NCBI RefSeq assembly: GCF_021117385.1
Contig: NZ_CP088252.1
Span: 992,001-1,056,000 of the forward strand
Reading direction: 5' to 3'
Source of the DNA: Frateuria soli
GTDB lineage: Bacteria > Pseudomonadota > Gammaproteobacteria > Xanthomonadales > Rhodanobacteraceae
DNA length: 64,000 bases
In this document: positions 37,900 to 54,473 of the stretch, piece after piece
How the letters are laid out: the number at the start of each line of letters is the position of its first letter
Position numbering within the stretch: position 1 is the stretch's first letter
Notes under the pieces: model-generated
The model's input: only the letters and a program-made list of their open reading frames with translations
What the model was told of the DNA's origin: nothing
Databases searched by the model: none
Program-made: the position numbers and the translations under genes

Positions 37900-39210
37900 G
37901 TGCCCACCCCACAGACACTCGTCCTGGCCGTGCTCGGCCCGCATGCGGCGCAGTTCGGCGCGCGCAGCCAGAAGGCCTTCGAGGGCCGCGACGGCAGCAT
38001 CGGCCGCGCGGAGGATTGCGACTGGGTACTCGGCGCCGCCGGCGTGTCGCGCGTGCACGCCATGGTGCGCTGCCTCAACGGCATGTACTTCATCGAGGAC
38101 CGCAGCACCAATGGCATGTTGCTCAACGGCCGCCCGCTGGTGAAGGGCGATCCGGCGTCGCTGAAGGACGGCGACCGCCTGCAGATCGACACCTTCGAAG
38201 TGGGCGTGCGGCTGCAGGCCGACAGCGCCATCCTGGCGCAGCCGGCCCAGGTGCAGGCGCCGGCGCCGGCGATGGCCGCGGCCGTGCCGCTGCCGGGAGG
38301 CGATTTCCTCGACGAGATGCTGGGCGGCCCGTTCGGCGCTCCGCAGACGCCTGCGCGCGGCATCCCGGACGAACCGCTGACCCCCCCCCCGGGGGGGCCG
38401 GCTGCCACGCTCGATCCGCTGGCTTTCCTGGACGAGCCGCTCGGCGCGGCCCCTGCGCCTGCACCGGGGGCGGTCCAGGCCGCCAGCTGGAACCATTCCA
38501 GCGGCATGGCCGATCACTTCCATCCGCCCGGCGTCGCCGGCCAGCGTCAGGCACTGCCGGAGAACTGGGACCTCACCATGGGCGACTTCGCGCCCAAGGC
38601 GTCGCCGGCTCCGGCGCCAGCCCCCGCGGCGCCGCCGCCCGCCCCGTCGGCGCCGCCGGCCATGCCTGCCGCCGCGATGGCGCCGGCCACCGGCGTGCCG
38701 CCCGAGCTGGACGCCATATTCCGCATCGTCGTCGATGGCGTGATGGATGTGCTGCGCGCCCGCGCCGAGATCAAGAACACCTTCCGCCTGCCGGTCACGC
38801 TGATCCAGCGCTCGGAAAACAATCCGCTGAAGTTCGCCCCCACCGCAGACGAGGCGCTGCAGAAGCTGCTCGCGCCTGCCAACGGCGCGTTCCTCTCCGG
38901 CACCGATGCCTTCCAGGACGCCTTCGACGACATCCGCTGCCACCAGATGGCGATGCTGGCGGGCGTGCGCGCGGGCTTCGAGGCCGTGCTGGCGCACTTC
39001 AACCCGGACCGGCTCGAACAGGAAGTGGATGGCAGCAAGCGCTCGGCCTTCGGCGGCAAGAGCCGCTACTGGGAGCGCTACCGGGAGAACTTCGAGGGCC
39101 TGGCCAAGGACCCGGACGAATGTTTCCGCCGCCTGTTCGGCGACGAGTTCGCGCGCGCCTATGAGGAACAACTGGCGCGACTGAAGTCGGCGCGGGTAAG
39201 GCAGCGGTGA
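37900..39210 (+). CDS. tagH: T6SS FHA-domain protein TagH (Fha)
   Basis: TagH, 436 residues. The N-terminal FHA domain (about 10-105) has GRAEDCDWVL, VSRVHAMVR and STNGMLLNGR, which bind phosphothreonine. A long Pro/Ala-rich linker (about 110-270) leads to the type VI C-terminal domain (FRIVVDGVMDVLRARAEIKN and QDAFDDIRCHQMAMLAGVRAG). GTG 37900 follows AAGGAG by 6 bp. It is the expected reader of the phospho-Thr marks written by the two kinases encoded downstream. A C10-G7 tract lies in the linker. Confidence 0.93.
   Translation: MPTPQTLVLAVLGPHAAQFGARSQKAFEGRDGSIGRAEDCDWVLGAAGVSRVHAMVRCLNGMYFIEDRSTNGMLLNGRPLVKGDPASLKDGDRLQIDTFEVGVRLQADSAILAQPAQVQAPAPAMAAAVPLPGGDFLDEMLGGPFGAPQTPARGIPDEPLTPPPGGPAATLDPLAFLDEPLGAAPAPAPGAVQAASWNHSSGMADHFHPPGVAGQRQALPENWDLTMGDFAPKASPAPAPAPAAPPPAPSAPPAMPAAAMAPATGVPPELDAIFRIVVDGVMDVLRARAEIKNTFRLPVTLIQRSENNPLKFAPTADEALQKLLAPANGAFLSGTDAFQDAFDDIRCHQMAMLAGVRAGFEAVLAHFNPDRLEQEVDGSKRSAFGGKSRYWERYRENFEGLAKDPDECFRRLFGDEFARAYEEQLARLKSARVRQR
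38381..38397 (+). repeat. Homopolymer tract C10-G7 inside tagH
   Basis: Ten C (38381-38390) directly followed by seven G (38391-38397) within the linker of tagH (codons about 161-166, PPPGG). The reading frame is open through it. Such tracts are prone to slippage in vivo and to sequencing error. Confidence 0.85.
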
Positions 39211-40704: not shown

Positions 40705-42042
40705 ATGAGCAACGGACCGTTCGACGAGGACATGCGCGACGCCACCGTGGTGCGCCCGCGCGGCACGCCGGGACCGGCTGCGCCCGTGGCGCCTCCACCC
40801 GCCGCCCACGCGCCGCCGCCGGCCGCCGGTTACGCTGCCGCGGCCCAGCCCGCGCGCGAGGAGGACATCAGCGGCTTCCTCGGCGGCGGCATGAACCCGC
40901 TGGTGCAGGCCGCCAGCCCGTTGTTGCTGCTGGCGGTACAGCTGCGCCACAGCGCCACCGCGCCGGACGCCGCGCGCCTGCGCGAACAGGCCACCACGCA
41001 GGTACGCCGCTTCGAAAGCCGCGCGCAGGCTTCCAACCTGCCGCAACAGACCGTGCTGGCGGCGCGCTACGTGCTGTGCACCATGCTCGACGAGTCGGCG
41101 CTGAACGCTCCCTGGGGCGAGCACAGCGGCTGGGCGCAACAGACCCTGCTGGTGGCGTTCCACAGCGAGTCCTACGGTGGCGCGAAGTTCTTCCAGATCC
41201 TCGAGCGGCTGTGCGCGGACTTTTCCAGGCACATCGACCTGATCGAGCTGATGTACATCTGCCTGGCGCTGGGCTTCGGCGGGCGTTACCAGATCGAGGC
41301 GGGCGGGCGCGCCAGGCTGGCGGACATCCAGGAGGATCTTTACCGGCGCCTCAAGGAACAGCGCGCGCCGGCCGCGCAGGAACTGGCGCCGCACTGGCGT
41401 GGCGTGGAAGACCGGCGCAATCCGCTGGTGCGCTACGTGCCGCTGTGGGTGATCGCGACCGCCGCCGCCTGCGTGCTGCTGGCGACGTTCCTGTTCTTCT
41501 ACACCCGGCTCAACGATGCGGCCGCGCCGGTCAATGCGCAGCTCGCGCGGATCGGGCTGGAAGGCGCGGCCCCGCCGGATACCACGCGCCGTCCCGCGCC
41601 CGAGCGCAAGCGACTGAAGCAACTGCTGGCGCCGGAAGAGCAGGCGGGAATGCTCACCATCGATGAGCAGCCCGACGGGCAGGCGATGCTGCGCCTCGCC
41701 GGCAACGCGATGTTCGCCTCCGGCGGCGTCGAAGTGAACGCGCGCCAGTTGCCTCTGCTGCACAGGATCACCGCCGCGCTCAACCAGGTGCCGGGCCGCG
41801 TGATCGTGATCGGCCACACCGACGATCAGCCGATCCACTCGCTGAAGTTCAAGGACAACTTCGCGCTGTCGGCGGCGCGTGCGCAGTCGGTGCGGCAGAT
41901 CCTGACGCAGGGGCTGGACAACCCGGGCCGCATCGAATCGACCGGCGCCGGCGCCTCGCAGCCGATCGCGTTGCCGCCGGACCTGCCGGACAACCGCACG
42001 CGCAACCGCCGCGTCGAAATCAAGTTCATCCCGGAGGCCTGA
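40705..42042 (+). CDS. tssL: T6SS membrane protein TssL with OmpA-like domain
   Basis: TssL (DotU/IcmH), 445 residues. N-terminal tail 1-50 is Pro/Ala-rich and contains DATVVRPRG with Thr14, the same motif as in both kinases. Next is the DotU cytoplasmic domain (GMNPLVQAASPLLLLAVQLR; CTMLDESALNAPWG; LELMYICLALGFGGRY-like), a transmembrane helix at about 246-268 (VIATAAACVLLATFLFFYT), and a periplasmic OmpA-type peptidoglycan-binding domain (VIVIGHTDDQPI; NFALSAARAQSVRQIL). In Agrobacterium phosphorylation of TssL at Thr14 recruits Fha, so this residue is a strong regulatory candidate here. Confidence 0.95.
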   Translation: MSNGPFDEDMRDATVVRPRGTPGPAAPVAPPPAAHAPPPAAGYAAAAQPAREEDISGFLGGGMNPLVQAASPLLLLAVQLRHSATAPDAARLREQATTQVRRFESRAQASNLPQQTVLAARYVLCTMLDESALNAPWGEHSGWAQQTLLVAFHSESYGGAKFFQILERLCADFSRHIDLIELMYICLALGFGGRYQIEAGGRARLADIQEDLYRRLKEQRAPAAQELAPHWRGVEDRRNPLVRYVPLWVIATAAACVLLATFLFFYTRLNDAAAPVNAQLARIGLEGAAPPDTTRRPAPERKRLKQLLAPEEQAGMLTIDEQPDGQAMLRLAGNAMFASGGVEVNARQLPLLHRITAALNQVPGRVIVIGHTDDQPIHSLKFKDNFALSAARAQSVRQILTQGLDNPGRIESTGAGASQPIALPPDLPDNRTRNRRVEIKFIPEA

Positions 42043-42046
42043 CGCC

Positions 42047-45000
42047 GTGGCGAAGTTGCTGAGCCTTTTGAAATCCGCCTGGTTCGTCACGCTGATCGGC
42101 GTGCTGCTGCTGTCGGTGCTGGTGTGGCTGGGCGGCCCCTACCTGGGCATCGGGGATGCGCAGCCACTGGCCAGTCCGGTGGCGCGGCTGCTGCTGATCA
42201 TGCTGATCGTGCTGGCCTGGGGCGCCTGGTTGCAGGTGCAGGCACTGCGCGCGCGCAGCAAGGCCAACAAGATGTCCGGCGAACTGGCCGGGCAGGGCGG
42301 CGCGGCCCCTGCGGAAGGCGGCGACAACCACAGCGCCGGCGAGCGTTCGCAGCTGCAAGGCCGCTTTGCCGAGGCGATCGAGATGCTGCGCAAGCATCGT
42401 CGCGGCAACCTGTACGCGCTGCCGTGGTACGTGGTGATCGGGCCGCCGGGCTCGGGCAAGAGCACGCTGCTGCAGAACTCCGGGCTCAACTTCCCGCTGT
42501 CCGAGCGCTTCGGCAAGGAAGCGCTGCGCGGTGTAGGCGGTACCCGCAACTGCGACTGGTGGTTCACCGATGAAGCGGTGTTCCTCGACACCGCCGGCCG
42601 TTACACCACGCAGGATTCCGATCGTTCCGCCGACGCGAGCGCCTGGGGCGAGTTCCTCAAGCTCCTGCGCCGCTATCGCAAGCGCCGACCGGTCAACGGC
42701 GTGATCGTCGCGATGAGCCTGTCCGACCTGATGGTGCTGGACGAGGCCGCGCGGCAGGACCATGCCCGTGCCATCCGCCGCCGGCTGGACGAGCTGACGG
42801 AGCATCTGAAGATCGGCGTGCCGGTCTACCTGGTGCTGACCAAGTGCGATCTCGTCGCGGGCTTCGGCGAGTTCTTCGACGACATGAATCCCGAACTGCG
42901 CAGCCAGGTCTGGGGCGTGTCCTTCCCGCTGGGCAAGACCATGGACGGCAGCGCCGCCAAGGCCTTCGCCGACGAGTACCGGCTGCTGCTCGACCGGCTC
43001 AACACGCGCACGCTCGACCGCCTGCACACCGAACGCGACCGTGGCCGCCGCGCCGCCGTGCTGTCCTTCCCGCAGCAGCTGGCCTCGCTGGGCGAGACCG
43101 CGCGGCAGTTCGTCGAGGGCGTGTTCGCCGGCCACGCCTACGGCACGCCGCCGCTGTTGCGCGGCGTCTACCTTACCTCCGGCACCCAGGAAGGCACGCC
43201 GATCGACCGCATGATGGGCGCGGTCGCCCGAACCTTCGGCCTGGACGCCGCGCGGGTGAATCCGCAGGGCGCGCAGCGGCGCACCTTCTTCGTCGAGCGG
43301 CTGCTCAGGGAGGTGCTGTTCCGCGAATCCGGCCTCGCCGGCACCAACCCCGCGATCGAGCGGCGCAAGGTCGCCGTGCAGCTGGCCGCGTACGCCGGCA
43401 TGGCGCTGTTCACCGTGCTGCTGTGCTTCGGCTTCGCCACCAGCTACGCGCGCAACCGTGCGTACCTGGGACAGGTGCAGGACGCGCTGAAGGGCTACCC
43501 GGCAGGCATCGACCTTCCGGCCAGCGCCACGCCGAAGGAGTATTTCGCCAAGGTGCTCGACCGGCTCGAGGCGCTGTCGGCCGTACGCAAGACGGCCACG
43601 CCCGAAGGTGGCGCGCCGATGTCGATGCGGCTGGGCCTTTACCAGGGCAAGGCGGTGGGCGAGGACCTGCAGGCGGCCTACCTGCGCGAACTCAACGCGC
43701 TGCTGCTGCCCGGCGTGGGGGCGCAGTTCCGCGGTGGCCTGGCCGCCAGCGCATCCGATCCGCAGGCGCTGTACTACTACCTGAAGGGCTACCTGATGCT
43801 GGGCGAGCCCCGGCACCTGGATGCGGACGAACTGGGGGCGCTGGCCAACCTGGAATGGCGCAAGGTTTTCCCCGACGAGCCGGTGCTGCAGCAGGCGCTG
43901 GCCAGGCACTTCCAGGCGCTGGTCGAGGAGCCCGGCCAGTTGCGCGCCCTGTCTCTGGATGCTGCGCTGGTGGAGCAGGCGCGCACCACGCTGCGGACGG
44001 CCGACCTCTCCACGCTGGTCTACGGCAGCATGAAGCTCTCGGCCGAGAGTGCCGGCAAGCCGCTGCAACTGGACAAGGAGCTGGGGCTCCTGGGCAACGT
44101 GTTCCGTCGCCAGAGCGGCAAGCCGCTGTCCGAGCCGCTGCCGGCGGTGTTCACGCAACCAGTGTTCGCCATCGAGGCGGACAAGGGCGTGGAGGAAGCC
44201 GTCAGGCAGTTCGCCGCCGACGATTGGGTGTTCGGCGCCGAGCCGATCGACGCACTGGCGCAGGCACGCCTCTCGCGACAGGTGCTGGCGCTCTACGAGG
44301 CCGACTACATCAAGGCCTGGGACGCATTGCTGGGCGACCTGCAGCTGCAACCCGCAGCCAGTATCCAGGACGCCAGCACGATCGCTGCGAAACTTTCCGG
44401 CCCGAGCTCGCCGCTGAAGTCGCTGCTCAAGCTGGTACGCGACAACACCAGCGACATGCTGCGCGCGCCGGCGCCCGACGCTGGCGACAAGGCGCTGGAT
44501 GCGGCCAGGGACGCTGCCGCCAAGAAAGCCACGCAGAACGCGTTGGGCCGCGCGCTGGCAAAAGCCGGCGGCGGCGCCGCGGCCGACGAGGCGCCGCCCG
44601 GCAGCGTCATCAGCGCGCACTTCGACACCCTCAACAAGCTGGGCGACGGCGCGTCCGGTGCCGCGCCGATCGACCAGACGCTCGCCGCGCTCGACCAGTT
44701 GAGCAAGACCCTGCTCACCATGACCGATTTCAGCGACGCGGCCGGCCAGCCGAACCCGCAGTTGCTGATGGCGCAGCAGGCCGCCGCACAGTTGCCGCCG
44801 CCGGTGTCCGGCTGGGTCGCCTCGCTTACCGGCAAGAGCCAGGCACTGGTGGCCAGCGGCACCAAGGGCGCGCTGGACGAGCAGTTCCAGCAGGCGGCGT
44901 CGCAGGACTGCGCGGCTTTTACCGAGGGCCGTTTCCCGTTCTCGCCGAACAGCCGCAACGATATCCCGGTGCAGAACTTCGGCGAGATGTTCGGCTACGG

Positions 45001-45556
45001 CGGGCGCTACGACGGCTTCTTCAAGCAGACCCTCGCCAAGCTCGTGGACACCAGCGGGCGCACCTGGCGGTGGAAGAGCGGCCCGGGCGCGGTGAGCGGC
45101 TCGGCTTCGATGCTGGCGCAGATGCAGCTGGCCGACAGCATCAAGCAGATGTACTTCCGCAACGGCAGCCCCACGCCCGAGGTCGGCTTCACCTTGCTGG
45201 CGCCGGTGCTGGCGCCGGGCATCGGCCGCTTTGCCATCGTCATCGACGGGCAGACTTTCGACTACAAGCCCGGCGGCAGCACCAGCATGGCCATGAACTG
45301 GCCCGGGCCGACCCCGGGGCAGGTGAAGGTGTCGGCCTGGGACACCTCCGGCAACCTGCTCAGCAGCTACGACTACCAGGGCGACTGGGCATTCTTCCAC
45401 GCGCTGCAGGCGGCGAAGCTCTCGCGACAGTCGGACCTGCGCTACCAGGCAAACTTCGATTTCGGCGGCCGGGCGGTACAACTGGTCGTCCAGGCCAGCA
45501 ATCTGAAGAACCCCTTCCTCAACACGCAGGTACAGCGCTTCCGGTGCGGGAGCTAG
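42047..45556 (+). CDS. tssM: T6SS membrane complex protein TssM (IcmF)
   Basis: TssM, 1169 residues. Two N-terminal membrane helices (about 9-35 and 45-66), a cytoplasmic GTPase-like domain with Walker A GPPGSGKST (about 132-140) and DTAGRYTTQD, a third membrane helix at about 446-468 (GMALFTVLLCFGFATSYA), and a large periplasmic part with the IcmF-related and C-terminal domains (YDGFFKQTLAKLVDTSGRTW; TFDYKPGGSTSMAMNWPGP). The start is GTG 42047, 4 bp after tssL. Length is typical. Confidence 0.95.
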   Translation: MAKLLSLLKSAWFVTLIGVLLLSVLVWLGGPYLGIGDAQPLASPVARLLLIMLIVLAWGAWLQVQALRARSKANKMSGELAGQGGAAPAEGGDNHSAGERSQLQGRFAEAIEMLRKHRRGNLYALPWYVVIGPPGSGKSTLLQNSGLNFPLSERFGKEALRGVGGTRNCDWWFTDEAVFLDTAGRYTTQDSDRSADASAWGEFLKLLRRYRKRRPVNGVIVAMSLSDLMVLDEAARQDHARAIRRRLDELTEHLKIGVPVYLVLTKCDLVAGFGEFFDDMNPELRSQVWGVSFPLGKTMDGSAAKAFADEYRLLLDRLNTRTLDRLHTERDRGRRAAVLSFPQQLASLGETARQFVEGVFAGHAYGTPPLLRGVYLTSGTQEGTPIDRMMGAVARTFGLDAARVNPQGAQRRTFFVERLLREVLFRESGLAGTNPAIERRKVAVQLAAYAGMALFTVLLCFGFATSYARNRAYLGQVQDALKGYPAGIDLPASATPKEYFAKVLDRLEALSAVRKTATPEGGAPMSMRLGLYQGKAVGEDLQAAYLRELNALLLPGVGAQFRGGLAASASDPQALYYYLKGYLMLGEPRHLDADELGALANLEWRKVFPDEPVLQQALARHFQALVEEPGQLRALSLDAALVEQARTTLRTADLSTLVYGSMKLSAESAGKPLQLDKELGLLGNVFRRQSGKPLSEPLPAVFTQPVFAIEADKGVEEAVRQFAADDWVFGAEPIDALAQARLSRQVLALYEADYIKAWDALLGDLQLQPAASIQDASTIAAKLSGPSSPLKSLLKLVRDNTSDMLRAPAPDAGDKALDAARDAAAKKATQNALGRALAKAGGGAAADEAPPGSVISAHFDTLNKLGDGASGAAPIDQTLAALDQLSKTLLTMTDFSDAAGQPNPQLLMAQQAAAQLPPPVSGWVASLTGKSQALVASGTKGALDEQFQQAASQDCAAFTEGRFPFSPNSRNDIPVQNFGEMFGYGGRYDGFFKQTLAKLVDTSGRTWRWKSGPGAVSGSASMLAQMQLADSIKQMYFRNGSPTPEVGFTLLAPVLAPGIGRFAIVIDGQTFDYKPGGSTSMAMNWPGPTPGQVKVSAWDTSGNLLSSYDYQGDWAFFHALQAAKLSRQSDLRYQANFDFGGRAVQLVVQASNLKNPFLNTQVQRFRCGS

Positions 45557-45558
45557 CC

Positions 45559-47124
45559 ATGTCCGGGCCGACAGGGGGCGGGGCGGCGAGCGTGGGTTTC
45601 TTCGGCAAGTTGCCGGGGGCGGGGGATTTCGTGCAGCGGCGGTTGCCGGGCGCGTTCGTGGAACGCTGGGACCGGCATTTCGAGCAGGCGGTGTTCGCCA
45701 GCCGGGAGGCCTTGGGCGAAGACTGGGGCGCAGCCTATCGTGCCAGCCCTGCCTGGCGTTTCGTGCTGGCGCCGCAGGCTTGCGGCGAGGGCGCCTGGGC
45801 CGGCGTGTTCGGCCCCGCCGACGACCGTGTCGGCCGCAGCTTTCCGATGGTGCTTGCCGCGCCGGTCGCGCCTGCGCGGATCGAGCCGCTGTTGTCCGAG
45901 GGCACCGGCTGGTTCGACGCGCTGGCGCGCGTGCATGCGCGGGGACAGCGCGGCGCGCCGGTGGACGCCGAGGGCTTCGATGTCCTGGTCGCGGCGCTGC
46001 CAGCTCCGTCGACGATCGCGCCGGCGCCGATCGACCCGTGCGACGGGATCGACTTCAGCCGTGGGCCGCACTGGCGTCTGCCGCTGCCGGCACGCGCCAT
46101 CGACCCCGATGCGCTGGCCGCCCTGTGGCGACGGCTCGCCGGTCACGGCGGTCACTGGTGTCTGTGGTGGAGCGAGGGTGCCGGTCGCGTGCCGGCCGGG
46201 ATCCTTGCCACCCGCGGCCTGCCCGCGCCAGAGGCCTATGCCGGTTTCCTGGATGCATCCCGGTCCGGCGCGTGGCTGACGCCCGCGGGTACCGCCGCGC
46301 CGCTGCCCGAGCCGGTGGCGCCTGCCGCGACCGAGCTGGCTCCGCCGCCTTCATCGCCACCGGTGCCGGCTCCCCCGCACGAGCCGGATGACGATGTGAC
46401 CGTGCCGGGCTTCGTGCGCCAGGCGCAAGCGCCGGCGTCCCTCGTGGGGGCACCGACATTCAACACCGCGCTTTCGGTCCAGACGGCGCCCGGTGCCGCC
46501 GTGGTGCACCATCCGGCCTGCGCCCTGACCCTGGTGGCGGCGGACATGGGCCTGGCCGATCCGCGCCGCCGCGCGGCCTCCTCGGCCGCCAGTGTCGGCG
46601 CCGAAATGACCGCGGGGGACGAGGCGGCGCCCGGAACGCATGCGTTGCGCGCCCGCCTGATGGCGCTTCATCCGCTGCTGCGCCACGGGCGCGTCAGCGA
46701 AGACGGCGCCGTGGTCGCCGCCCGCGTTGCCGGTACCCAGGCGGGGTTGCTGCGCGTGGGGGCTGCGGGAGTCTGGCACTGGCGTGGCGGCCGGATTCGC
46801 CCGCTGTTCGCGGCGGCGCCGGCGCAGCCGTCGCCGCCCGGCGGCGACCTGGACGATCTGCTGTTCGGCGGCAACGACGCTCCCACCGCTCCCGGCCTCG
46901 GTGCCGAAGGCATGCCCGGCTGTGAGCAGATCGCCTGCGAACTCATGCCGGGCGACCGCCTGGTGCTGCTGGCCGGCGTGGCGCACGTGCAGCTCTCGCA
47001 GGCCGTGCTGGCCCAGGCGCTGGCCGCCGCCACGCCGGAGGATGCGCAGGCGCACCTGGCCCACGCACTGGGCTCCAACCCTTCGCGGCCCTGGCCGCTG
47101 GCCGTCATCGAGGTGCAGCCATGA
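45559..47124 (+). CDS. tagF: TagF fused to a degenerate PP2C-like domain
   Basis: A 521-residue protein. Residues about 10-225 are TagF (VGFFGKLPGAGDFVQRRLPGAFVERWDRHFEQAV; GEGAWAGVFGPADDRVGRSFPMVLA), a post-translational inhibitor of T6SS that binds Fha. After a Pro-rich linker the C-terminal 220 residues follow the outline of a PP2C phosphatase (LTLVAADMGLAD; GAVVAARVAGTQAGLLRVGAAGVWHWRGGRIRPLF; ELMPGDRLVLLAGVAH) but the metal-binding Asp residues (DG, DN) are absent. TagF-PppA fusions are known in other T6SSs; here an intact phosphatase follows as a separate gene, overlapping by 4 bp. Confidence 0.85.
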   Translation: MSGPTGGGAASVGFFGKLPGAGDFVQRRLPGAFVERWDRHFEQAVFASREALGEDWGAAYRASPAWRFVLAPQACGEGAWAGVFGPADDRVGRSFPMVLAAPVAPARIEPLLSEGTGWFDALARVHARGQRGAPVDAEGFDVLVAALPAPSTIAPAPIDPCDGIDFSRGPHWRLPLPARAIDPDALAALWRRLAGHGGHWCLWWSEGAGRVPAGILATRGLPAPEAYAGFLDASRSGAWLTPAGTAAPLPEPVAPAATELAPPPSSPPVPAPPHEPDDDVTVPGFVRQAQAPASLVGAPTFNTALSVQTAPGAAVVHHPACALTLVAADMGLADPRRRAASSAASVGAEMTAGDEAAPGTHALRARLMALHPLLRHGRVSEDGAVVAARVAGTQAGLLRVGAAGVWHWRGGRIRPLFAAAPAQPSPPGGDLDDLLFGGNDAPTAPGLGAEGMPGCEQIACELMPGDRLVLLAGVAHVQLSQAVLAQALAAATPEDAQAHLAHALGSNPSRPWPLAVIEVQP

Positions 47125-47846
47125 CCGTGCGCTACCTGTCCGCGGGGCATACCCACACCGGCAAGGTCCGCAGGCACAACGAGGACGCGATCCTGCTGCG
47201 CGAGGACGTCGGCCTGTGGGTCGTCGCCGATGGACTGGGCGGCCACTCGGCGGGCGATTACGCCAGTGGGCTCATCGTCGAGCGGCTGGGCTCGCTGCCA
47301 CGCGACGGCGACGTTTTCGAGTTCATCGAATCGATTGAGGACGCCCTCTCGCAGGTCAACAGCGAACTGCGCCAGGTGGCCACGGCGCGTGGCGTCGACC
47401 TGATCGGCTCGACCGTGGTGCTGCTGGTGTACGACCCGGACTTCATGCTCTGCGGCTGGGTCGGCGACAGCCGCGCCTACTGCTTCGAGGACGGCCATCT
47501 GCGCCAGATCACCCAGGATCACGTGCACGGCGTCAAGGACGAAGTCACCCAGTTCGCCGGCGGCCCGGCCCCTGCTCGTCCGCAGCCGGGCGCCGGCGTG
47601 CTGACCCGCGCGGTCGGGGCGGAGGAACGGCTGTTCGTCGACTGGGTGGTCGCCGGCAACCGCCCGGGCATGCAGTTCGTGCTGTGTTCCGACGGCATCA
47701 ACAAGGAAATGTCGGACGAGGAAATCGACGCGCAGTGCGCGCGTCCGCAGCCACCCGGCGACGTGCTGCAGGGACTGTTCGCGCTGGCCATGGCTCGCGC
47801 CGCGCGCGACAACGTGTCGGCCGTGGTCGTGCGGCTGCAGGACTGA
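47121..47846 (+). CDS. pppA: PP2C-family protein phosphatase
   Basis: A 241-residue PP2C (PppA/Stp-like) phosphatase. Metal-binding motifs are intact: VRRHNEDA, WVVADGLGGHSAGD, WVGDSRAY, FVLCSDGINKEM and ARAARDNVSAVVVRL. It should remove phosphates placed by the neighbouring Ser/Thr kinases, switching secretion off. It lies in an ATGA overlap with tagF and 10 bp before the first kinase gene. Confidence 0.93.
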   Translation: MTVRYLSAGHTHTGKVRRHNEDAILLREDVGLWVVADGLGGHSAGDYASGLIVERLGSLPRDGDVFEFIESIEDALSQVNSELRQVATARGVDLIGSTVVLLVYDPDFMLCGWVGDSRAYCFEDGHLRQITQDHVHGVKDEVTQFAGGPAPARPQPGAGVLTRAVGAEERLFVDWVVAGNRPGMQFVLCSDGINKEMSDEEIDAQCARPQPPGDVLQGLFALAMARAARDNVSAVVVRLQD

Positions 47847-47856
47847 CGCGACGACC

Positions 47857-50010
47857 ATGGCCACCTCCACGCTAAGCACCCTCATCGAGGCATACCAGGC
47901 CGGCGAGCTCACGTTGCCGGCGCTGCTGGTCGACGCACTGGCCGAGCGCGGCGCGGTGCCTGCGGGCCAGCACGCCGCCGAATTGCAACTGCTCGCGCGA
48001 ATGCGCGAGGAGGGCGGCCTCGACGCCGGTGTGGCGCAACTGGTGTCCGAGCGCCTGGAAGTGCTGCAGCGCGCCGGCGAGGAGGTGGCCGCGGTGCTGG
48101 TTGCGTCCGAAGCCGACGCGGCGGCCTGCGTTGCGCCGCCCCGGCCATCGATGCCGACCGCCGCTCCGGCGGACGAGGCCACCCGCGTCGCGCCTCCTGC
48201 GCGGCCGGCAACCGACGCCGCGCCCGCGGACCAGGCGACCGTGGTCAAGCCGGCGTCCGTCCGGCCGGAGGCGACCCGCACCGGCGTCACCGGTTCGCGC
48301 ACCGCCGGCGGCACCGGCAGCATCGACGCGGCCGGCTGGCAGCAACTGGCCGACGTTGCGGGCGGCGACCAGGCGACGATCGGCATGCTGCTCAAGGGGC
48401 GCTTCCTGATCGAGCGCGAGATCGGCCGCGGTGGCATGGGCGTGGTGTTCCTGGCCCGCGACGAGCGCAAGGTCGAAGCGCGCGACCGCGATCCGTACGT
48501 CGCGGTGAAAGTGCTCAACGACGAGTTCCGCCGCCACCCGGATTCGCTGATGGCGCTGCAACGCGAGTCGCGCCGTTCGCAGCAACTGGCGCACGACAAC
48601 ATCGTGCGCGTCTACGACTTCGACAAGGACGGAACCATCGTCTTCATGACGATGGAGTACGTCGACGGCTCCGACCTCAAGACACTGATCCGCGAGAGCG
48701 CCTTCCGCGGCCTGCCGCTGGCGAAGGCCAGGCCGCTGATCGAGGGCATGGCGCGTGCGCTCAAGCGCGCGCACGACGCCGGCGTGGTGCACTCGGACTT
48801 CAAGCCGGGCAACGTGATGGTCACCCGCGAGGGCAGCCCCAAGGTGTTCGACTTCGGCATCGCGCGCGCCGGCAAGCAACCGGACGATGCAGCCGAGGAC
48901 CAGACCGTGTTCGACGCGGGGCGGCTCGGCGCGCTGACGCCGGCCTACGCCAGCCTGGAGATGATTCAGGGCCGGCCGCCGCAGGCGACCGACGACATCT
49001 ACGCGCTGGGCTGCGTCGCGTTCGAGCTGCTTACCGGCAAGCATCCGTTCGACAGGCTGAGCGCCGAGGTGGCGCTGCGCGAGGGGCGCAAGCCGCCGCC
49101 GGTGCCGGGGCTTACCCGCCGCCAGTACCGGGCGTTGTGCGACGCCGTCGCCTTCACCGCCGACAAGCGCCTGAAGAGCGCGGACCTGCTCGTGGAGGGT
49201 TTGCGCGATGTCGGCCTGGGTGAACGGCTGGGCCGGCCGCTCGCATGGGCGCTGGTGGCTGTCCTGCTGCTGGCGGTCGCCGGCTGGGGCGCGTTCGGGC
49301 AGTGGCGTGCGCGTCAGGTAGCCGACGTCGCCGCACGCTTCCAGGCCACCGATCCGCAGCGCTTCGGCGACGAGGCCGAGGCGGCTGCCGCGCTCGAGCA
49401 ACTGGGCGAGGACGGACGCAAGCGGTTGATGCTCGACCAGGGCGATCGGGTGCAGCAATTCCTGCTCGACCGCGTCGACGCCTACTGGAATCCCGCACAG
49501 GGGCGGCGCGACTACGCCGCGGCCGAGCGCGTGTTCGAGTTGCCCGCGCGGCTTCATCTGTTCCTGCCGCGGCTGGATCTCAAGCGTGCCGCCGTGGAGA
49601 AGGAAAAGCAGGAACTGGAGCGTCCCGCCGTAGTGAGGACGTCGCCGCCAGCCTTACCGGTTCAGCCGCCGCAGGGTACGTCGATTCCAGCGTCGCACGC
49701 CCAGGAGGCGCCGGAACCGGCCAGGCGGCCGCCGGCATCGACGCAGGTGTCGGGTTCTCCCGGGGTGGCGCCGGCGGAAAAGCACGGAGCCGCTCCGCAG
49801 CCTGCCGTGCCTTCCAACCGCATGCAGGAGGTCGCCGCCGGCCTGCTGCGCGAGGGCGAGCGCAACTTCGCCCAGCAGAACTACTCGGCCGCCATCGCCA
49901 ACGCCAAGGCCGCGCTGCAGGTGAACCCGGGCGACGCGGCGGCCAGACGTCTCCTGCGCCGCGCCCAGAGGGCGCAGCAGCAGGCCATGAACAGCATCTC
50001 GATCAACTGA
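47857..50010 (+). CDS. ppkA: Membrane Ser/Thr protein kinase (PpkA-like)
   Basis: A 717-residue kinase. N-terminal region 1-160 ends in a Pro/Ala-rich stretch holding two copies of A-T-x-V-x-P (T109, T128). The kinase domain (about 180-445) has GRGGMGVVF, catalytic Lys218 (YVAVKVL), the catalytic loop HSDFKPGN (Asp314, with Ser replacing the usual Arg of HRD) and DFG at 332-334. A membrane helix lies at about 461-480, followed by a periplasmic part with a Pro-rich linker and a C-terminal helical repeat (NYSAAIANAKAALQVNPGDAAARRLLR). It is a close paralogue of the kinase at 50772. Confidence 0.92.
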   Translation: MATSTLSTLIEAYQAGELTLPALLVDALAERGAVPAGQHAAELQLLARMREEGGLDAGVAQLVSERLEVLQRAGEEVAAVLVASEADAAACVAPPRPSMPTAAPADEATRVAPPARPATDAAPADQATVVKPASVRPEATRTGVTGSRTAGGTGSIDAAGWQQLADVAGGDQATIGMLLKGRFLIEREIGRGGMGVVFLARDERKVEARDRDPYVAVKVLNDEFRRHPDSLMALQRESRRSQQLAHDNIVRVYDFDKDGTIVFMTMEYVDGSDLKTLIRESAFRGLPLAKARPLIEGMARALKRAHDAGVVHSDFKPGNVMVTREGSPKVFDFGIARAGKQPDDAAEDQTVFDAGRLGALTPAYASLEMIQGRPPQATDDIYALGCVAFELLTGKHPFDRLSAEVALREGRKPPPVPGLTRRQYRALCDAVAFTADKRLKSADLLVEGLRDVGLGERLGRPLAWALVAVLLLAVAGWGAFGQWRARQVADVAARFQATDPQRFGDEAEAAAALEQLGEDGRKRLMLDQGDRVQQFLLDRVDAYWNPAQGRRDYAAAERVFELPARLHLFLPRLDLKRAAVEKEKQELERPAVVRTSPPALPVQPPQGTSIPASHAQEAPEPARRPPASTQVSGSPGVAPAEKHGAAPQPAVPSNRMQEVAAGLLREGERNFAQQNYSAAIANAKAALQVNPGDAAARRLLRRAQRAQQQAMNSISIN

Positions 50011-50023
50011 GGAGGGACTCGCC

Positions 50024-50707
50024 ATGCAAAACGGATTCCGCGGTATCAGCCTGTTGGGTGCGGCCTGCGCGCTCGCGCTGGTGAGTGGTTGCGCGCAGAT
50101 GCCCAGCCTGGGCGCGCCAGCCGCCGACAGCGGCCAGACCGACGCCGGCACGGTGTCGGCCGAGTGCAATCCGGCCGTGGGTGGTGCGATCGGCGCACTG
50201 GCCGGTTCGATGTTCGGCAAGGGCAAGGGACACCTGGCCGGCGCGGCGATCGGTGCCGGCATCGGCGTGTTCGCCTGCATGGCCTACAACTACCACGCGC
50301 GCAAGGTGCGAGACGCACGCTCGGTCGAAGACCAGTACCGTCGCGACCGCGGCGCCTTGCCGGCGAACAACACCATCAGCGCCTACCAGACCGCGCTGCT
50401 GCCGGGCGAGACCATCCGCTCCGGCAGCAAGGCGGCGATGCAGTCGCGCGTCACGCTGGTACGCGGCACGCAGGACGCGGCCCCGCAACTCAAGGAACAG
50501 CTGACCCTGTTCGCTCCCGACGGCCGTCAGCTGACCACCGTTACCAAGGACGCCACCGCCATCGACGGCACCGGCGAGTACGAGACCAATTTCGACTTCA
50601 ACCTGCCCAAGGGCATCCAGGACGGCCGCTACACGATGCGCTCGGCGCTTTACATGGACGGGCAGCAGGTGCGTACCAACGAAGTTCCCATGCTGGTGGT
50701 CAGCTGA
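50024..50707 (+). CDS. Lipoprotein with glycine zipper, T6SS-linked
   Basis: A 227-residue lipoprotein: signal peptide with lipobox LVSGC (Cys23), then a glycine-zipper segment (GGAIGALAGSMFGKGKGHLA and following GAAIGAGIGVF), and a C-terminal beta-sandwich-like part (RVTLVRGTQDAAPQLKEQLTLFAPDGRQL ... YETNFDFNLPKGIQDGRY). It lies between the two kinase genes. It may be a sensor partner of the kinases' periplasmic parts, or a stand-in for the missing TssJ lipoprotein. It is longer than TssJ and I do not recognise it as one. Confidence 0.75.
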   Translation: MQNGFRGISLLGAACALALVSGCAQMPSLGAPAADSGQTDAGTVSAECNPAVGGAIGALAGSMFGKGKGHLAGAAIGAGIGVFACMAYNYHARKVRDARSVEDQYRRDRGALPANNTISAYQTALLPGETIRSGSKAAMQSRVTLVRGTQDAAPQLKEQLTLFAPDGRQLTTVTKDATAIDGTGEYETNFDFNLPKGIQDGRYTMRSALYMDGQQVRTNEVPMLVVS

Positions 50708-50771
50708 CCGGATCCAGCCATCGCACCGGCTGCCGCGGCTCCGCGGCAGCCGCCTCACGAAAGAGCTTTGC

Positions 50772-53700
50772 ATGAATACGCTTGCCGAACTGATCGCCGC
50801 CTTCCGCAACGGCCACCTGCCGCTCCCCATGCTGCTCGATACCCTGGGTCGCCGCGGTGCGGTACCGGAGGATCGCCACCACGACGAGCTCGCGCTGCTG
50901 CGCCGCCTGCACGACGGGGGCGACCTGGATGCCGAGATCGGCCGCGTGCTGCTGGAGCGGCTGATGGCCGCGCAAGCCGTAACCGCGGAACCGGGATTGT
51001 TCGAGGACGCCACCATGGTGGCGCCGGCCGGGGCGGCGTTCGTGGAACATGACGCCACGAGGGTGGCACCTGCGCCCGCCGTCCACGGCGTGCCGGGGGA
51101 CACCGGAGACGCGACCGTGGTCATGCCGGCCGCGCGCCCGCCGGCGCCGTCCTACCCGGTCGGCGACGCGACCGTGGTCATGCCCGCCTCGCGCGGGGGC
51201 GCGACCGGGGATGCCCAGTCCACTGGCACCCAATCCGGCACCGGGACGCATTCGGGCAACAGCGCCAGCTGGGAACGCCTGGCCGGCGCCGCGGGCGGTG
51301 ACCACGCACACGTCGGCATGTTGCTCAAGGGCCGCTTCATGCTCGAGCGCGAGATCGGCCGCGGCGGCATGGGCGTCGTTTTCCTCGCGCGCGACGAGCG
51401 CAAGGTCGAGGCGCGCGACCGCGATCCGTATGTCGCGGTGAAGGTGCTGAACGACGAGTTCCGTCGCCATCCCGATTCGCTGATCGCGCTGCAGCGCGAA
51501 TCGCGTCGCTCGCAGTCGCTGGCGCACGACAACATCGTGCGCGTCTACGACTTCGACAAGGACGGGACCATCGTCTTCATGACGATGGAATACGTCGACG
51601 GCTCGGACATGAAGGCGCTGATCCGCGAGCGTGCCTACAACGGCATGCCGCTGGCCAGGGCCCGCCCGCTGATCGAGGGCATGGCCTGGGCGCTCAAGCG
51701 CGCGCACGCCGCTGGCGTGGTGCATTCGGACTTCAAGCCCGGCAACGTGATGGTCACGCGCGATGGCGTGCCCAAGGTGTTCGACTTCGGCATCGCGCGT
51801 GCCGGTCAGCACATGGGCGAGGCGGTCGGCGAAGAGACGGTGTTCGATGCCGGCACGCTGGGCGCGTTGACGCCGGCCTACGCCAGCCTGGAGATGATCC
51901 AGGGCGGCGAGCCCTCGCCCAGCGACGACATCTATGCGCTGGGTTGCGTGGCGTTCGAGCTGCTTACCGGCAAGCACCCGTTCGACAAGGTGAGCGCCGA
52001 AGTGGCGATGCGCGAAGGGCGCAAGCCGCCGGCGGTACCGGGCCTGACCCGTCGCCAGTACAAGGCGCTGTGCGACGCGGTCGCGTTCCGTGGCGAGGAC
52101 CGCCTGCGCACCGCGCAGGAGTTCGTCGAGGGCCTGCGCGAGGTCGGCCTGCGCGAGCGGATCGGCCCGTACCTGGCGTGGGGCGCCGGCGCACTGGTCG
52201 TGCTGGTCGCCGGCGGCTGGGGCGGCGCGCACTACCTGCACCAGCGCAAGGTGGCGCAGGTGATCGCCCGCTTCGCGCCGGACGACGCGCACCACTACAC
52301 TGACGAAGCCCAGGCGCTGGCCGCGCTGGGCACCCTCGACGAGGAAGAGCGCAAGCGCCTCGTGCTCGACCAGGGCGACCTCATCCAGCGCTTCCTGCTG
52401 GCCCGCCTGGACGCCTACTGGAATCCCGCGCAGGGCCGCTACGACTATGCCCACGCGCAGCAGCTGTTCGCGCTGCGCGAACAGCTCAAGCTGTACTCGC
52501 CGGAACTGGACATCCGCCGCAGCGCGATGGACCAGCAGAAGAACGAACTGCTCAACAGCCTGGACACCCAGCTCTCCCAGCGCATCGAGGCCGGCGCGAT
52601 CTTTGCCGACCAGCCGGGCAGCGCGGTCGAGACGCTGCAGAAGATCCGCGCCATCGACCCGACCAGCAGCCTGCTCAGGAATGCCGAGCTCGAGCTCAAG
52701 TACGACATCGCCATCGGCGGCGCCTTGGCGCAGCACCACGGCGACCGGGCCGCCGCGCACCTGAAGCAGGCGCTGGCGCTGTTCCCCGATTCGGCACGCC
52801 TGCAACGCCGCCGGGCCCAGCTCGATGCGATGGCCGCCGGCAGCGCCGTGGCCGTTGCGCCGGTCGCCGCGGCCGCGACCAGCCTGCCCGAGGCGCGCAC
52901 CGCCCTGGCCGCGCTGATCGCCCACCCGGAAGCGAGCGCGGACTGGCAACGCCAGCTCGCTGCCGCGATGGCGCCGCTCAAGGGCGATGCTTCGCCACAG
53001 ACGCGCGCACTGGTCGAGCAGCTCGCCACCGCCATCGCCACGGCCGCCGGCCAGCAGACCGATCCGCTGCACCTGCCGCAGGACCTGGCGCTGGTCGAGT
53101 TCGGCTTGACCGTGGCGCCGCAGTCGCCAGCGCTCAAGGTCGCGCGCGATCGCCTCGCCGCGCTGGACAAGCAGCAGCAGGACCGGTTGGCACAGGAGAG
53201 CGCGGCGGCCGAGGTCACCGCGCGCATCGAGTCGGTCAAGCGCGCCGCCGCGGCGGGCGACACCACCAAGGCGCAGGAATCGCTGGCGCGGATCCGCACG
53301 CTGGCGCCGCAGCACACGTTCCTGGCCAGCGAAGGCCCGCAACTGCTAGCCGACGCCTATCTGGGGCAGGCCCGCGAAGCATTCCGCAAGGGCCGCTACC
53401 AGTCCGCCGCCGACGTGCTCACGCGCGCCATCGGCCTGCTCGGCCAGCGCGCCGATCTGGCCAGGGCCAGCGCCCGCTATGGGCTGGCGGCCGATCTGGT
53501 CAAGGCCCGCGGCCAGGTCGTCTCCTCGACCGACCTCGATCGCATGCGCCGCCAGCTGGCGCAGGTGCGCCACGCCGATGCCGATGCGCTGGCCGCGCTC
53601 GAGGCGGACATGAAGCTGCGGGGGCAGCTCGGTGAAGGCTCGCTGGCCGCCTTGCTGGATTCGCTCAGGCCAGCCGGTGCCACGTCGCCCACGCCGGTTT

Positions 53701-54473
53701 CGCCGGTCGCCACGCCGACGCCGACGGTCGGCAACACCACGCTGCCGGCCACCGCGCCCGCGATCGCGACCGGCCGGCTCGCCACCGCCGCGGCGGGAAA
53801 GGGCGGTGCCGCGGTGGTCCGCCCGGCGCCGGCCATTGCCACTGCCGGACCCATCTCCGACCCGTGCGGCGCGCCGGACCTGGTCGGCGCGGGCCGCGCC
53901 TGCTTCGACACCATCGACGGCAAGCGCGGTCCTGCGTTGGTGGTAGTACGCGCCGGCGGCAAGACGCTTGCGATGACCCGCTCGGAAATCACCATCAACG
54001 AATACAACCGCTACTGCGCCGCTACCGCCAAGTGCACCGCCATCGTGCCGGAGGATCGCTACGCAGGCAGCCTGCCGGTGAGCAACATCAGCCTGGAGCA
54101 GGCACGCGCGTACGCCGCATGGCTCGGCAGCGCCAGCGGCCATGTCTATCGCCTGCCCACCGACACCGAATGGCTGGCGGCCGCCCGTGCCGGCGGCAGC
54201 TGGAAGCAGGCGCCGGACAGCAACTGCATCCCGCCCACCGCGGGCGCCGACGATGGCAGCGGCGCGCCGATCGCGGCGCGCGGACGCAGCCCCAACCCGT
54301 GGGGCCTGATCAACCTGACCGGCAACGTCTGGGAATGGGTGGACGGCGGGGCCGCCGTCCGCGGCGGCAGTTACACCAGCTACTGGTCCGACTGCACCGT
54401 CGACAGCCGTCGCGGCGACGGCGGCGGTGCGCAGAAGGACGTCGGCCTGCGCCTGGTGAGGGAGGTGCCATGA
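50772..54473 (+). CDS. Ser/Thr kinase fused to FGE-sulfatase domain
   Basis: A 1233-residue membrane kinase. Residues 75-140 contain four A-T-x-V-x-P copies (T81, T96, T115, T134). The kinase domain is about 185-450: GRGGMGVVF, Lys224, HSDFKPGN with Asp320, DFG at 338-340. A membrane helix is at about 467-486, then a long helical repeat-rich periplasmic region (about 500-1000) and, after a Pro/Thr/Ala linker, a formylglycine-generating-enzyme-like (SUMF) domain from about 1062 (MTRSEITINEYNRYC; YRLPTDTEWLAAAR; GNVWEWVDGG). In Pseudomonas the periplasmic FGE-like TagR activates PpkA; here sensor and kinase are one protein. The kinase domain is nearly identical to the upstream one. Confidence 0.92.
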   Translation: MNTLAELIAAFRNGHLPLPMLLDTLGRRGAVPEDRHHDELALLRRLHDGGDLDAEIGRVLLERLMAAQAVTAEPGLFEDATMVAPAGAAFVEHDATRVAPAPAVHGVPGDTGDATVVMPAARPPAPSYPVGDATVVMPASRGGATGDAQSTGTQSGTGTHSGNSASWERLAGAAGGDHAHVGMLLKGRFMLEREIGRGGMGVVFLARDERKVEARDRDPYVAVKVLNDEFRRHPDSLIALQRESRRSQSLAHDNIVRVYDFDKDGTIVFMTMEYVDGSDMKALIRERAYNGMPLARARPLIEGMAWALKRAHAAGVVHSDFKPGNVMVTRDGVPKVFDFGIARAGQHMGEAVGEETVFDAGTLGALTPAYASLEMIQGGEPSPSDDIYALGCVAFELLTGKHPFDKVSAEVAMREGRKPPAVPGLTRRQYKALCDAVAFRGEDRLRTAQEFVEGLREVGLRERIGPYLAWGAGALVVLVAGGWGGAHYLHQRKVAQVIARFAPDDAHHYTDEAQALAALGTLDEEERKRLVLDQGDLIQRFLLARLDAYWNPAQGRYDYAHAQQLFALREQLKLYSPELDIRRSAMDQQKNELLNSLDTQLSQRIEAGAIFADQPGSAVETLQKIRAIDPTSSLLRNAELELKYDIAIGGALAQHHGDRAAAHLKQALALFPDSARLQRRRAQLDAMAAGSAVAVAPVAAAATSLPEARTALAALIAHPEASADWQRQLAAAMAPLKGDASPQTRALVEQLATAIATAAGQQTDPLHLPQDLALVEFGLTVAPQSPALKVARDRLAALDKQQQDRLAQESAAAEVTARIESVKRAAAAGDTTKAQESLARIRTLAPQHTFLASEGPQLLADAYLGQAREAFRKGRYQSAADVLTRAIGLLGQRADLARASARYGLAADLVKARGQVVSSTDLDRMRRQLAQVRHADADALAALEADMKLRGQLGEGSLAALLDSLRPAGATSPTPVSPVATPTPTVGNTTLPATAPAIATGRLATAAAGKGGAAVVRPAPAIATAGPISDPCGAPDLVGAGRACFDTIDGKRGPALVVVRAGGKTLAMTRSEITINEYNRYCAATAKCTAIVPEDRYAGSLPVSNISLEQARAYAAWLGSASGHVYRLPTDTEWLAAARAGGSWKQAPDSNCIPPTAGADDGSGAPIAARGRSPNPWGLINLTGNVWEWVDGGAAVRGGSYTSYWSDCTVDSRRGDGGGAQKDVGLRLVREVP

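What the first reader, a model, noticed from the sequence alone, without database searches (positions are those of the whole stretch)
40705..51192. The same A-T-x-V-x-P motif repeated in TssL Thr14 and in the juxta-domain tails of both kinases
Seen: ATVVRP at TssL residues 13-18; ATRVAP and ATVVKP in kinase 1 (T109, T128); ATMVAP, ATRVAP, ATVVMP and ATVVMP in kinase 2 (T81, T96, T115, T134). All are in disordered Pro/Ala-rich segments. Known: in Agrobacterium TssL phosphorylated at Thr14 binds Fha. The shared motif suggests that the kinases autophosphorylate several Fha-binding sites, competing with or handing over TagH to TssL, a tunable multivalent phospho-switch that I do not know to be described.
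Basis: partly seen in the sequence, partly recalled or inferred. Interest (0 to 1): 0.78.

Follow-up and report, generated by a model that had tools for sequence, protein, structure and literature searches.

The report
Shared phospho-threonine motif in T6SS kinases
A short threonine-containing tag recurs in a membrane part of a bacterial molecular spear gun and several times in the tails of its two controlling kinases, is kept by evolution, and is probably what a reader protein grips once the kinases have phosphorylated it.

Summary
The host looks like a Frateuria.

The motif, [D/E][D/E]-[A/V]-T-x-V-x-P, is conserved. It is in 47 of 48 close T6SS-linked kinases (mean 2.4 copies) and 0 of 26 more distant unlinked kinases. 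In a class-wide sample the TssL tail has it in 23 of 28 loci with a canonical FHA protein and 0 of 9 without one. Some relatives carry it in Fha too.

Best reading: PpkA phosphorylates its own disordered tail and TssL, and the FHA domain of Fha/TagH reads both; the tail would work like the PknG tail that docks GarA. In Acidovorax, kinase-dead PpkA binds Fha less and gives fewer Fha foci, while Fha T640 and TssL are dispensable for foci.

Corrections: Agrobacterium T14 is LPTVVEIT, not ATVVRP. Several Xanthomonas and Stenotrophomonas lack the TssL site but keep kinase sites, so hand-over to TssL cannot be general. Phosphorylation and binding are untested.

The parts
40705..42042 (+). tssL, long form with OmpA-like C-terminus (445 aa)
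   Evidence: Pfam DotU E 3e-70 and OmpA 6e-10; NCBIfam TIGR03350 over cut-off
40741..40758 (+). TssL motif ATVVRP, residues 13-18, Thr14
   Evidence: DAT[VI]VRP in 32 of 34 family loci with a PpkA-type kinase
47857..50010 (+). Kinase 1 (PpkA-like): N-terminal helical domain, disordered linker, Hanks kinase domain
   Evidence: Pfam PF00069 7e-37; AF2 model of residues 1-448
48178..48195 (+). Kinase 1 motif ATRVAP, residues 108-113, Thr109
   Evidence: pLDDT < 50
48235..48252 (+). Kinase 1 motif ATVVKP, residues 127-132, Thr128
   Evidence: Thr in 29 of 30 aligned kinases while the median linker column has its commonest residue in 35%
48115..48138 (+). Eroded further site in kinase 1, DAAACVAP (residues 87-94), Thr replaced by Ala
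   Evidence: the aligned column holds one residue, Thr, in 28 of 30 rows; sister L070 has DEATCVAP
50772..54473 (+). Kinase 2 (PpkA-like with C-terminal FGE-sulfatase-like domain)
   Evidence: PF00069 1.9e-35, PF03781 5e-19
51009..51026 (+). Kinase 2 motif ATMVAP, Thr81
51054..51071 (+). Kinase 2 motif ATRVAP, Thr96
51111..51128 (+). Kinase 2 motif ATVVMP, Thr115
51168..51185 (+). Kinase 2 motif ATVVMP, Thr134
37900..39210 (+). Fha/TagH, the presumed reader: FHA domain, disordered linker, C-terminal helical domain
   Evidence: TIGR03354 348 bits vs cut-off 120; AF2 FHA domain pLDDT about 87-96 per block; Foldseek best hits GarA and FhaA FHA domains
38221..38244 (+). Eroded motif in Fha just after the FHA domain, DSAILAQP (Ile at the Thr position)
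   Evidence: sister species have DSATLVQP, DAATLVQP or DNATVVQP
47121..47846 (+). PP2C phosphatase (PppA-like)
   Evidence: PF13672 3e-15
45553..47124 (+). TagF with a long C-terminal extension
   Evidence: PF09867 6e-34, residues 15-130; TIGR03373 over cut-off

Best explanation
The repeated [D/E][D/E]-[A/V]-T-x-V-x-P element is a short linear phospho-threonine motif of the T6SS threonine-phosphorylation pathway. PpkA-type kinases phosphorylate the Thr in their own disordered N-terminal linker (several copies, so the local concentration is high) and in the cytoplasmic N-terminus of TssL. The FHA domain of Fha/TagH binds the phosphorylated copies. The kinase-tail copies act first of all as docking sites that hold Fha at the membrane kinase (as the autophosphorylated PknG tail holds GarA/OdhI), raising its local concentration for assembly. 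The TssL copy then lets the same FHA domain engage the membrane complex. PppA would reset the sites. Shown: the motif, its conservation, its near-restriction to TssL, PpkA and some Fha, its tie to a canonical Fha, the intact FHA pocket and kinase catalytic residues, and predicted disorder of the kinase 1 tail. Inferred: phosphorylation, who writes it, FHA binding, order of events.
For: Motif residues are conserved while spacers diverge: among five Frateuria-type genomes, window included, amino-acid differences are 0.17 (K1) and 0.18 (K2) at motif columns vs 0.40 at spacers; in kinase 2 the codons differ as often in both (0.61 vs 0.60), so selection there is on protein. T128 is kept in 29 of 30 kinases in a linker whose median column has its top residue in 35%. 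T6SS-linked kinases of at least 60% identity with an N-extension: 47 of 48 with motif, mean 2.44; unlinked under 60%: 0 of 26. Strict motif by gene in family loci: TssL 34/35, kinases 34/34, Fha 7/35, TssM 3/35, TssK 0/38, TagF 0/23, PppA 0/35, Gly-zipper lipoprotein 0/9. TssL motif 23 of 28 with canonical FHA vs 0 of 9 with divergent or no FHA (Fisher 1.6e-5). FHA pocket residues R36, S50, H53 and N71 are invariant wherever aligned. Kinase K218, D314, N319 and D332 are in 30 of 30. The kinase activation loop T-V-F-D (29, 28, 30 and 29 of 30) resembles the motif core acidic-x-T-V-[V/F], as expected if one kinase writes both. Literature: Fha binds pTssL in Agrobacterium; TssL is also reported as PpkA2 target in Vibrio alginolyticus (reviews); autophosphorylated PknG tail docks FHA proteins; in A. 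citrulli kinase-dead PpkA binds Fha less and gives fewer Fha foci, while Fha T640A and loss of TssL do not affect foci.
Against: No phosphorylation or binding was measured. FHA domains are usually read as selecting the +3 residue (Lin et al. refer to pT+3), but here +3 varies (K, Q, A, M in kinases; R in 26 of 31 TssL) while +2 V is nearly constant and +4 P is part of the search, so kinase preference rather than FHA reading may set the consensus. In kinase 1 the motif codons as well as the residues vary less than the spacers (0.33 vs 0.60), so that part does not separate DNA from protein constraint. The proven Agrobacterium site lacks +4 Pro and its Rhizobium relative's kinase has no tail motif. 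In A. citrulli Fha T640 itself is required for T6SS function, so Fha phosphorylation matters there. Kinases with an N-terminal kinase domain: 9 of 39 rows have T-x-[V/I/L]-x-P in the linker after it, only 4 with an acidic -2 (L220, which is L105's kinase, L223, L239, L240); of four kinases beside a motif-bearing TssL (L250-L253) three have none and one a non-acidic TPVEP. Ten loci with the TssL motif show no close-type kinase in the stretch; for L081 and L119 one lies just outside, L105 has a distant-type one, the rest were not settled. One close linked kinase (L156) and two mid-distance ones (L164, L165) lack strict copies, although L164/L165 have DKT or DET variants. Related species are not independent samples, and the family and named sets share some contigs.
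Confidence: 0.62

Rival explanations
1. The motif is only the kinase's substrate consensus: tail sites are autophosphorylation sites that tune kinase activity or dimerisation, TssL is one substrate among others, and Fha does not bind the kinase tail.
For: Near-constant +2 V with a free +3 fits a kinase preference; the activation loop (TVFD) resembles it.
Against: TssL motif presence follows a canonical Fha; kinase-dead PpkA binds Fha less in A. citrulli. Both are also compatible with other causes, such as co-loss of kinase and Fha.
Confidence: 0.22
2. One reading: tail sites and TssL compete for Fha, and Fha is handed from kinase to TssL as a tunable multivalent switch (a special case of the best explanation, not exclusive of it).
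For: Same motif in both; TssL has a distinct +3 residue (R in 26 of 31) from kinases (mostly K, Q, A, M), which could give different affinities.
Against: Several Xanthomonas and Stenotrophomonas loci keep kinase motifs without a TssL site; A. citrulli Fha foci do not need TssL.
Confidence: 0.25
3. The element is a phosphorylation-independent short motif that binds some other partner, such as TssM, the N-terminal helical domain of the kinases or the DotU domain.
For: Strong conservation alone does not prove phosphorylation.
Against: The central Thr is the most conserved residue of the kinase 1 linker (29 of 30) and TssL Thr14 phosphorylation is proven in Agrobacterium.
Confidence: 0.08
4. Chance in Pro/Ala/Thr-rich low-complexity tails, or a recent DNA duplication.
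For: Tails are Ala/Pro rich; T115 and T134 copies have identical 20-base cores.
Against: Shuffles, no tandem repeat array, conserved residues with diverged codons in kinase 2, conservation across families.
Confidence: 0.01

Closest known systems
PknG-GarA/OdhI FHA-substrate docking (Actinobacteria)
   Same: Disordered N-terminal kinase extension with several autophosphorylated Thr that anchor an FHA protein (PMC8546545, passages read)
   Different: Different kinase lineage and pathway; the PknG tail is described there as poorly conserved, whereas here a clear motif is kept; here the same motif is also in a secretion-machine subunit
Agrobacterium TssL pThr14-Fha interaction
   Same: Cytoplasmic N-terminal Thr of TssL, PpkA-dependent, read by the Fha FHA domain (PMC3953482, abstract and passages read)
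   Different: Sequence context LPTVVEIT lacks A(-1) and P(+4); the Rhizobium kinase in L199 has no motif tail
Acidovorax citrulli PpkA-Fha condensates
   Same: Active PpkA binds and localises Fha independently of Fha T640 (PMC12607579, abstract, passages and section 7 read)
   Different: Authors attribute this to catalytic residues stabilising the interaction; the word motif does not occur in the main text; [quoted passage not shown]
Xanthomonadales group 3 T6SS with tagF-pppA-ppkA-fha
   Same: The cluster type that the window resembles by gene content (PMC6653060, passages read)
   Different: That review leaves the pathway experimentally open; the window has two PpkA-like kinases

Membership tests
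T6SS threonine-phosphorylation pathway (PpkA-PppA-Fha-TagF) | Hanks-type kinase with catalytic residues | tested here: met
   PF00069 in K1 and K2; K218, D314, N319, D332 in 30 of 30 aligned kinases
T6SS threonine-phosphorylation pathway (PpkA-PppA-Fha-TagF) | TagH/Fha with intact pThr pocket | tested here: met
   TIGR03354 over cut-off; R36, S50, H53, N71 conserved wherever aligned; FHA fold, GarA/FhaA nearest
T6SS threonine-phosphorylation pathway (PpkA-PppA-Fha-TagF) | PP2C phosphatase and TagF in the locus | tested here: met
T6SS threonine-phosphorylation pathway (PpkA-PppA-Fha-TagF) | Thr phosphorylation of TssL or Fha | not testable with these tools
   needs phosphoproteomics
Agrobacterium-type TssL pT14 site | Thr at position 14 of the N-terminal tail | tested here: met
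Agrobacterium-type TssL pT14 site | Same flanking sequence (LPT[VI]VE[IL]) | tested here: not met
   window RDATVVRP vs DLPTVVEI and NLPTIVEL
PknG-type tail docking of an FHA protein | Disordered N-terminal extension with several candidate Thr | tested here: met
   K1 residues 88-155 pLDDT < 50 but for one residue; 2 and 4 motif copies in K1 and K2; K2 not modelled
PknG-type tail docking of an FHA protein | Autophosphorylation of the tail and FHA binding to it | not testable with these tools
   needs biochemistry
PknG-type tail docking of an FHA protein | Kinase is a PknG orthologue | tested here: not met
   NCBIfam best is PknB-type NF033483, below its cut-off; no PknG model was returned, though I did not check that one is held. 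It may work like PknG but is not filed as PknG

The most novel reading that the evidence does not exclude
One portable phospho-Thr code, [D/E][D/E]-x-T-x-V-x-P, is spread over kinase, scaffold (Fha) and membrane complex (TssL). Multivalent FHA reading of it nucleates a kinase-activity-dependent condensate at the membrane where a T6SS is then built, and lineages shift the code between TssL, Fha and PpkA. This would unify the species-specific reports of either Fha or TssL being the PpkA target.
Probability: 0.35. Interest if true: 0.78.

Novelty: new variant of a known kind. Interest (0 to 1): 0.6.

Why it matters
T6SS reports name either Fha or TssL as the PpkA target depending on species. The 2014 Agrobacterium paper found its TssL site conserved in Agrobacterium and Rhizobium but not in distant TssL proteins, while suggesting that TssL might still be a target elsewhere. 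A single motif that is present in 23 of 28 sampled loci with a canonical Fha, and in multiple copies in this clade's kinase tails, makes that testable with short peptides and offers a mechanism for the unexplained need for active PpkA in Fha focus formation. I found no paper describing such a motif or a PpkA tail docking site for Fha in searches (open-licence PMC only; listings, plus passages of the papers named here).

Tried and rejected
Viral contigs hold no confirmed TssL relative. Looking for the window motif in its own Fha: the only hit is TGVPP at T264, without an acidic -2. A strict trade-off between TssL and Fha motifs was considered: Xanthomonas L142 and L144 have DRTQVAP in Fha and no TssL motif, but of 82 loci many have both or neither, so no rule is claimed. 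A general juxtamembrane motif in kinases with an N-terminal kinase domain was considered: 9 of 39 rows, mostly kinases not shown to be T6SS-linked. Proteome-wide enrichment was considered: the DNA pattern exceeds its reversed control in only 12 of 61 genomes, own included, so the enrichment is local to the locus. Loci first scored as lacking Fha (L046, L052, L055, L057, L063, L071) have FHA hits just outside the fetched stretch, and L057's contig has a kinase about 6 kb upstream of TssL; they belong to the family sample, not to the counts. What was sampled: 40 of the 51 best family matches and 40 of the 49 best class matches were fetched; weaker matches were not. In one search three truncated loci (L090, L107, L115, one with motif) were set aside, and L080 was put in the FHA class from a Pfam hit about 12 kb away, against the hypothesis. 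In 'linked' means a tblastn hit to window TssL or TssM in the locus; only kinases with an N-extension of 40 aa or more were counted; for L139 the TssL hit looks like another OmpA-type protein, and the one unlinked close kinase with motif (of 3) is L163 on a 3-kb contig. The kinase 1 and kinase 2 rows scan the same best-hit kinases; best hits under 45% identity were left out there. Papers searched for kinase consensus motifs in Mycobacterium gave nothing.
Full report
What is there. The window lies in a 3.49 Mb, one-contig genome. The nearest named relative by the kinase domain is Frateuria terrea (90%; records of the genome itself may be hidden from that list), whose contig length equals that of G005, a genome of the window's own genus. 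The cluster is the genome's only one with a DotU domain. The relevant genes on the + strand are fha/tagH (37900-39210), tssK (39363-40700), tssL (40705-42042), tssM (42047-45556), tagF (45553-47124), a PP2C phosphatase (47121-47846), kinase 1 (47857-50010), a Gly-zipper lipoprotein (50024-50707) and kinase 2 (50772-54473). The genome has five Hanks kinases and three FHA matches; two kinases and one FHA are in this cluster.

The observation. All seven A-T-x-V-x-P sites are exactly as described. They exceed composition-preserving shuffles. Two non-T6SS kinases of the genome (L005, L006) and one non-T6SS FHA protein (L001), in the stretches read, show no T-x-[V/I/L]-x-P; the fifth kinase (L004) and the third FHA protein (L003) were not read. 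The DNA pattern for [D/E]-A-T-x-V-x-P has 14 matches in the genome, 6 of them in TssL, K1 and K2.

Conservation in the family. Of 197 genomes of the family, 90 have a DotU match; I fetched 40 of the 51 best matches, up to 20 kb each. In all 34 loci where a PpkA-type kinase was found, every such kinase has one to five T-x-[V/I/L]-x-P sites before its kinase domain. TssL carries D-A-T-[V/I]-V-R-P in 32 of these 34; L065 has DVTMVRP and L076 DATVVRA. Scored gene by gene with an acidic residue at -2 or -3, the motif is in TssL 34 of 35, kinases 34 of 34, Fha 7 of 35, TssM 3 of 35, and none in TssK, TagF, PppA or the lipoprotein.

Selection. Among five Frateuria-type genomes, window included, motif codons change amino acid in 0.17 (kinase 1) and 0.18 (kinase 2) of comparisons and spacer codons in 0.40; in kinase 2 codons differ equally (0.61 vs 0.60), in kinase 1 less at the motif (0.33 vs 0.60). 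In a 30-kinase alignment, T128 is Thr in 29 rows, with V130 in 23 and P132 in 25, while the median linker column has its commonest residue in 35%. There is no tandem repeat array.

Specificity to T6SS kinases. Of 79 named loci fetched by the kinase domain (the best 80 of 342), T6SS-linked kinases of at least 60% identity with an N-extension have the motif in 47 of 48 (mean 2.44 copies); linked at 40-60%, 2 of 4; unlinked under 60%, 0 of 26; unlinked over 60%, 1 of 3. The profile over 117 kinase sites is D(-3) 84, D/E(-2) 105, A/V(-1) 91, V/R(+1) 95, V(+2) 108, then mostly K/Q/A/M(+3), with P(+4) by definition. In TssL +3 is R in 26 of 31.

TssL across the class. In 40 loci from a class-wide sample (40 of the 49 best matches), 23 of 28 with a canonical FHA protein have T-x-[V/I/L]-x-P in the TssL tail, against 0 of 2 with a divergent FHA and 0 of 7 with none; 3 truncated loci were set aside (Fisher 1.6e-5, not corrected for kinship). 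Typical forms are DRTVIRPxPGGR and GDGTVVRPxPGGR. Near misses among the five without it include TITIP, TIIVKP and TVMRP. In Alphaproteobacteria, Leisingera (L204) has DKTVIKPNPGGR in TssL and EDATIIVP after the kinase domain; Azospirillum (L205) has EGTVVQP before it; Rhizobium L199 has LPTIVEL like Agrobacterium; Rhizobium L200, with an FHA protein but no kinase or phosphatase among the listed (incomplete) features of 29 kb, has no TssL motif.

Of 82 loci with a TssL tail and a complete Fha, 18 lack the strict TssL motif and 14 of these keep kinase sites. Xanthomonas L142 and L144, Stenotrophomonas L141 and L143, and L110 have no such Thr site in TssL yet keep one or two kinase sites. Xanthomonas L133, L136 and L137, whose Fha was outside the stretch, are alike; L134 and L135 have only a non-acidic TELEP or TQLDP. 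So the kinase sites have a role that does not need the TssL site. Eight further loci keep the Thr context without the Pro. Two Xanthomonas Fha proteins carry DRTQVAP, and seven Frateuria- or Dyella-type Fha carry forms such as DSATLVQP just after the FHA domain. The window's own Fha has lost this site (DSAILAQP), and kinase 1 has one eroded site (DAAACVAP, Ala in a column that is otherwise nearly all Thr).

Structure. AlphaFold2 of kinase 1 (residues 1-448; 30 sequences) gives a helical N-terminal domain (to about 89), a linker with pLDDT < 50 from 88 to 155 apart from one residue, and a confident kinase domain apart from its activation-loop region. Fha has a confident FHA domain, a mostly disordered linker (about 111-260) and a helical C-terminus. 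Its best Foldseek matches are GarA and FhaA FHA domains, including the PknB-GarA complex. Pocket residues R36, S50, H53 and N71 are invariant wherever the alignment covers them.

Mechanism. Precedents from papers: Fha binds the phosphorylated TssL peptide in Agrobacterium through its pThr pocket (PMC3953482, abstract and passages). The autophosphorylated, disordered PknG tail recruits the FHA protein GarA/OdhI (PMC8546545, passages). In Acidovorax citrulli, kinase-dead PpkA binds Fha more weakly and gives fewer Fha foci, while Fha T640A and loss of TssL do not affect the foci; T640 is nevertheless required for killing (PMC12607579, section 7). A phospho-tail on PpkA that docks Fha would explain the foci result; the authors propose that catalytic residues stabilise the contact, and I could not read that PpkA sequence. 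I therefore commit to: PpkA writes the motif on itself and on TssL, Fha reads it, and the kinase tail is mainly a docking platform. Competition or hand-over is possible but not supported as general.

Limits. No phosphorylation or binding data exist here. Counts are over related species, and the family and named sets share some contigs. The consensus could be set by the kinase rather than by the FHA domain. Kinases with an N-terminal kinase domain carry the motif only sporadically. Literature searches cover open-licence PMC papers only.

Noticed in passing
38221-38244 (+), Fha residues 108-115: The window's Fha has DSAILAQP where sister species have DSATLVQP or DNATVVQP: a lost copy of the motif just after the FHA domain.
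   Followed up: partly
48115-48138 (+), kinase 1 residues 87-94: Eroded further motif, DAAACVAP, with Ala in a column that holds Thr in 28 of 30 aligned kinases.
   Followed up: partly
L082, L084, L111, L113, L114, L116, L117, L118 (TssL N-termini): A second candidate TssL site, DKTVF[R/K/W]Q[P/S], upstream of the TVIRP site; it resembles the kinase activation loop TVFD.
   Followed up: no
45553-47124 (+): TagF has about 390 residues beyond the TagF_N domain with no Pfam or NCBIfam match.
   Followed up: no
50772-54473 (+), residues 1066-1230: Kinase 2 ends in an FGE-sulfatase (SUMF1-like) domain, presumably periplasmic.
   Followed up: no
50024-50707 (+): Gly-zipper lipoprotein-like gene between the two kinases; weak similarity to YiaD/OmpA lipoproteins.
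   Followed up: no
L201 20255-21653: Paraburkholderia plasmid T6SS where the phosphatase gene is followed by a short hypothetical gene and an integrase, with no kinase listed in the stretch, although TssL keeps the motif.
   Followed up: no
window; L059, L062, L070, L072; L054, L056, L066; L042, L043: Two PpkA-like kinases in one T6SS cluster, each with its own motif tail; the other kinase-bearing family loci fetched show one.
   Followed up: partly
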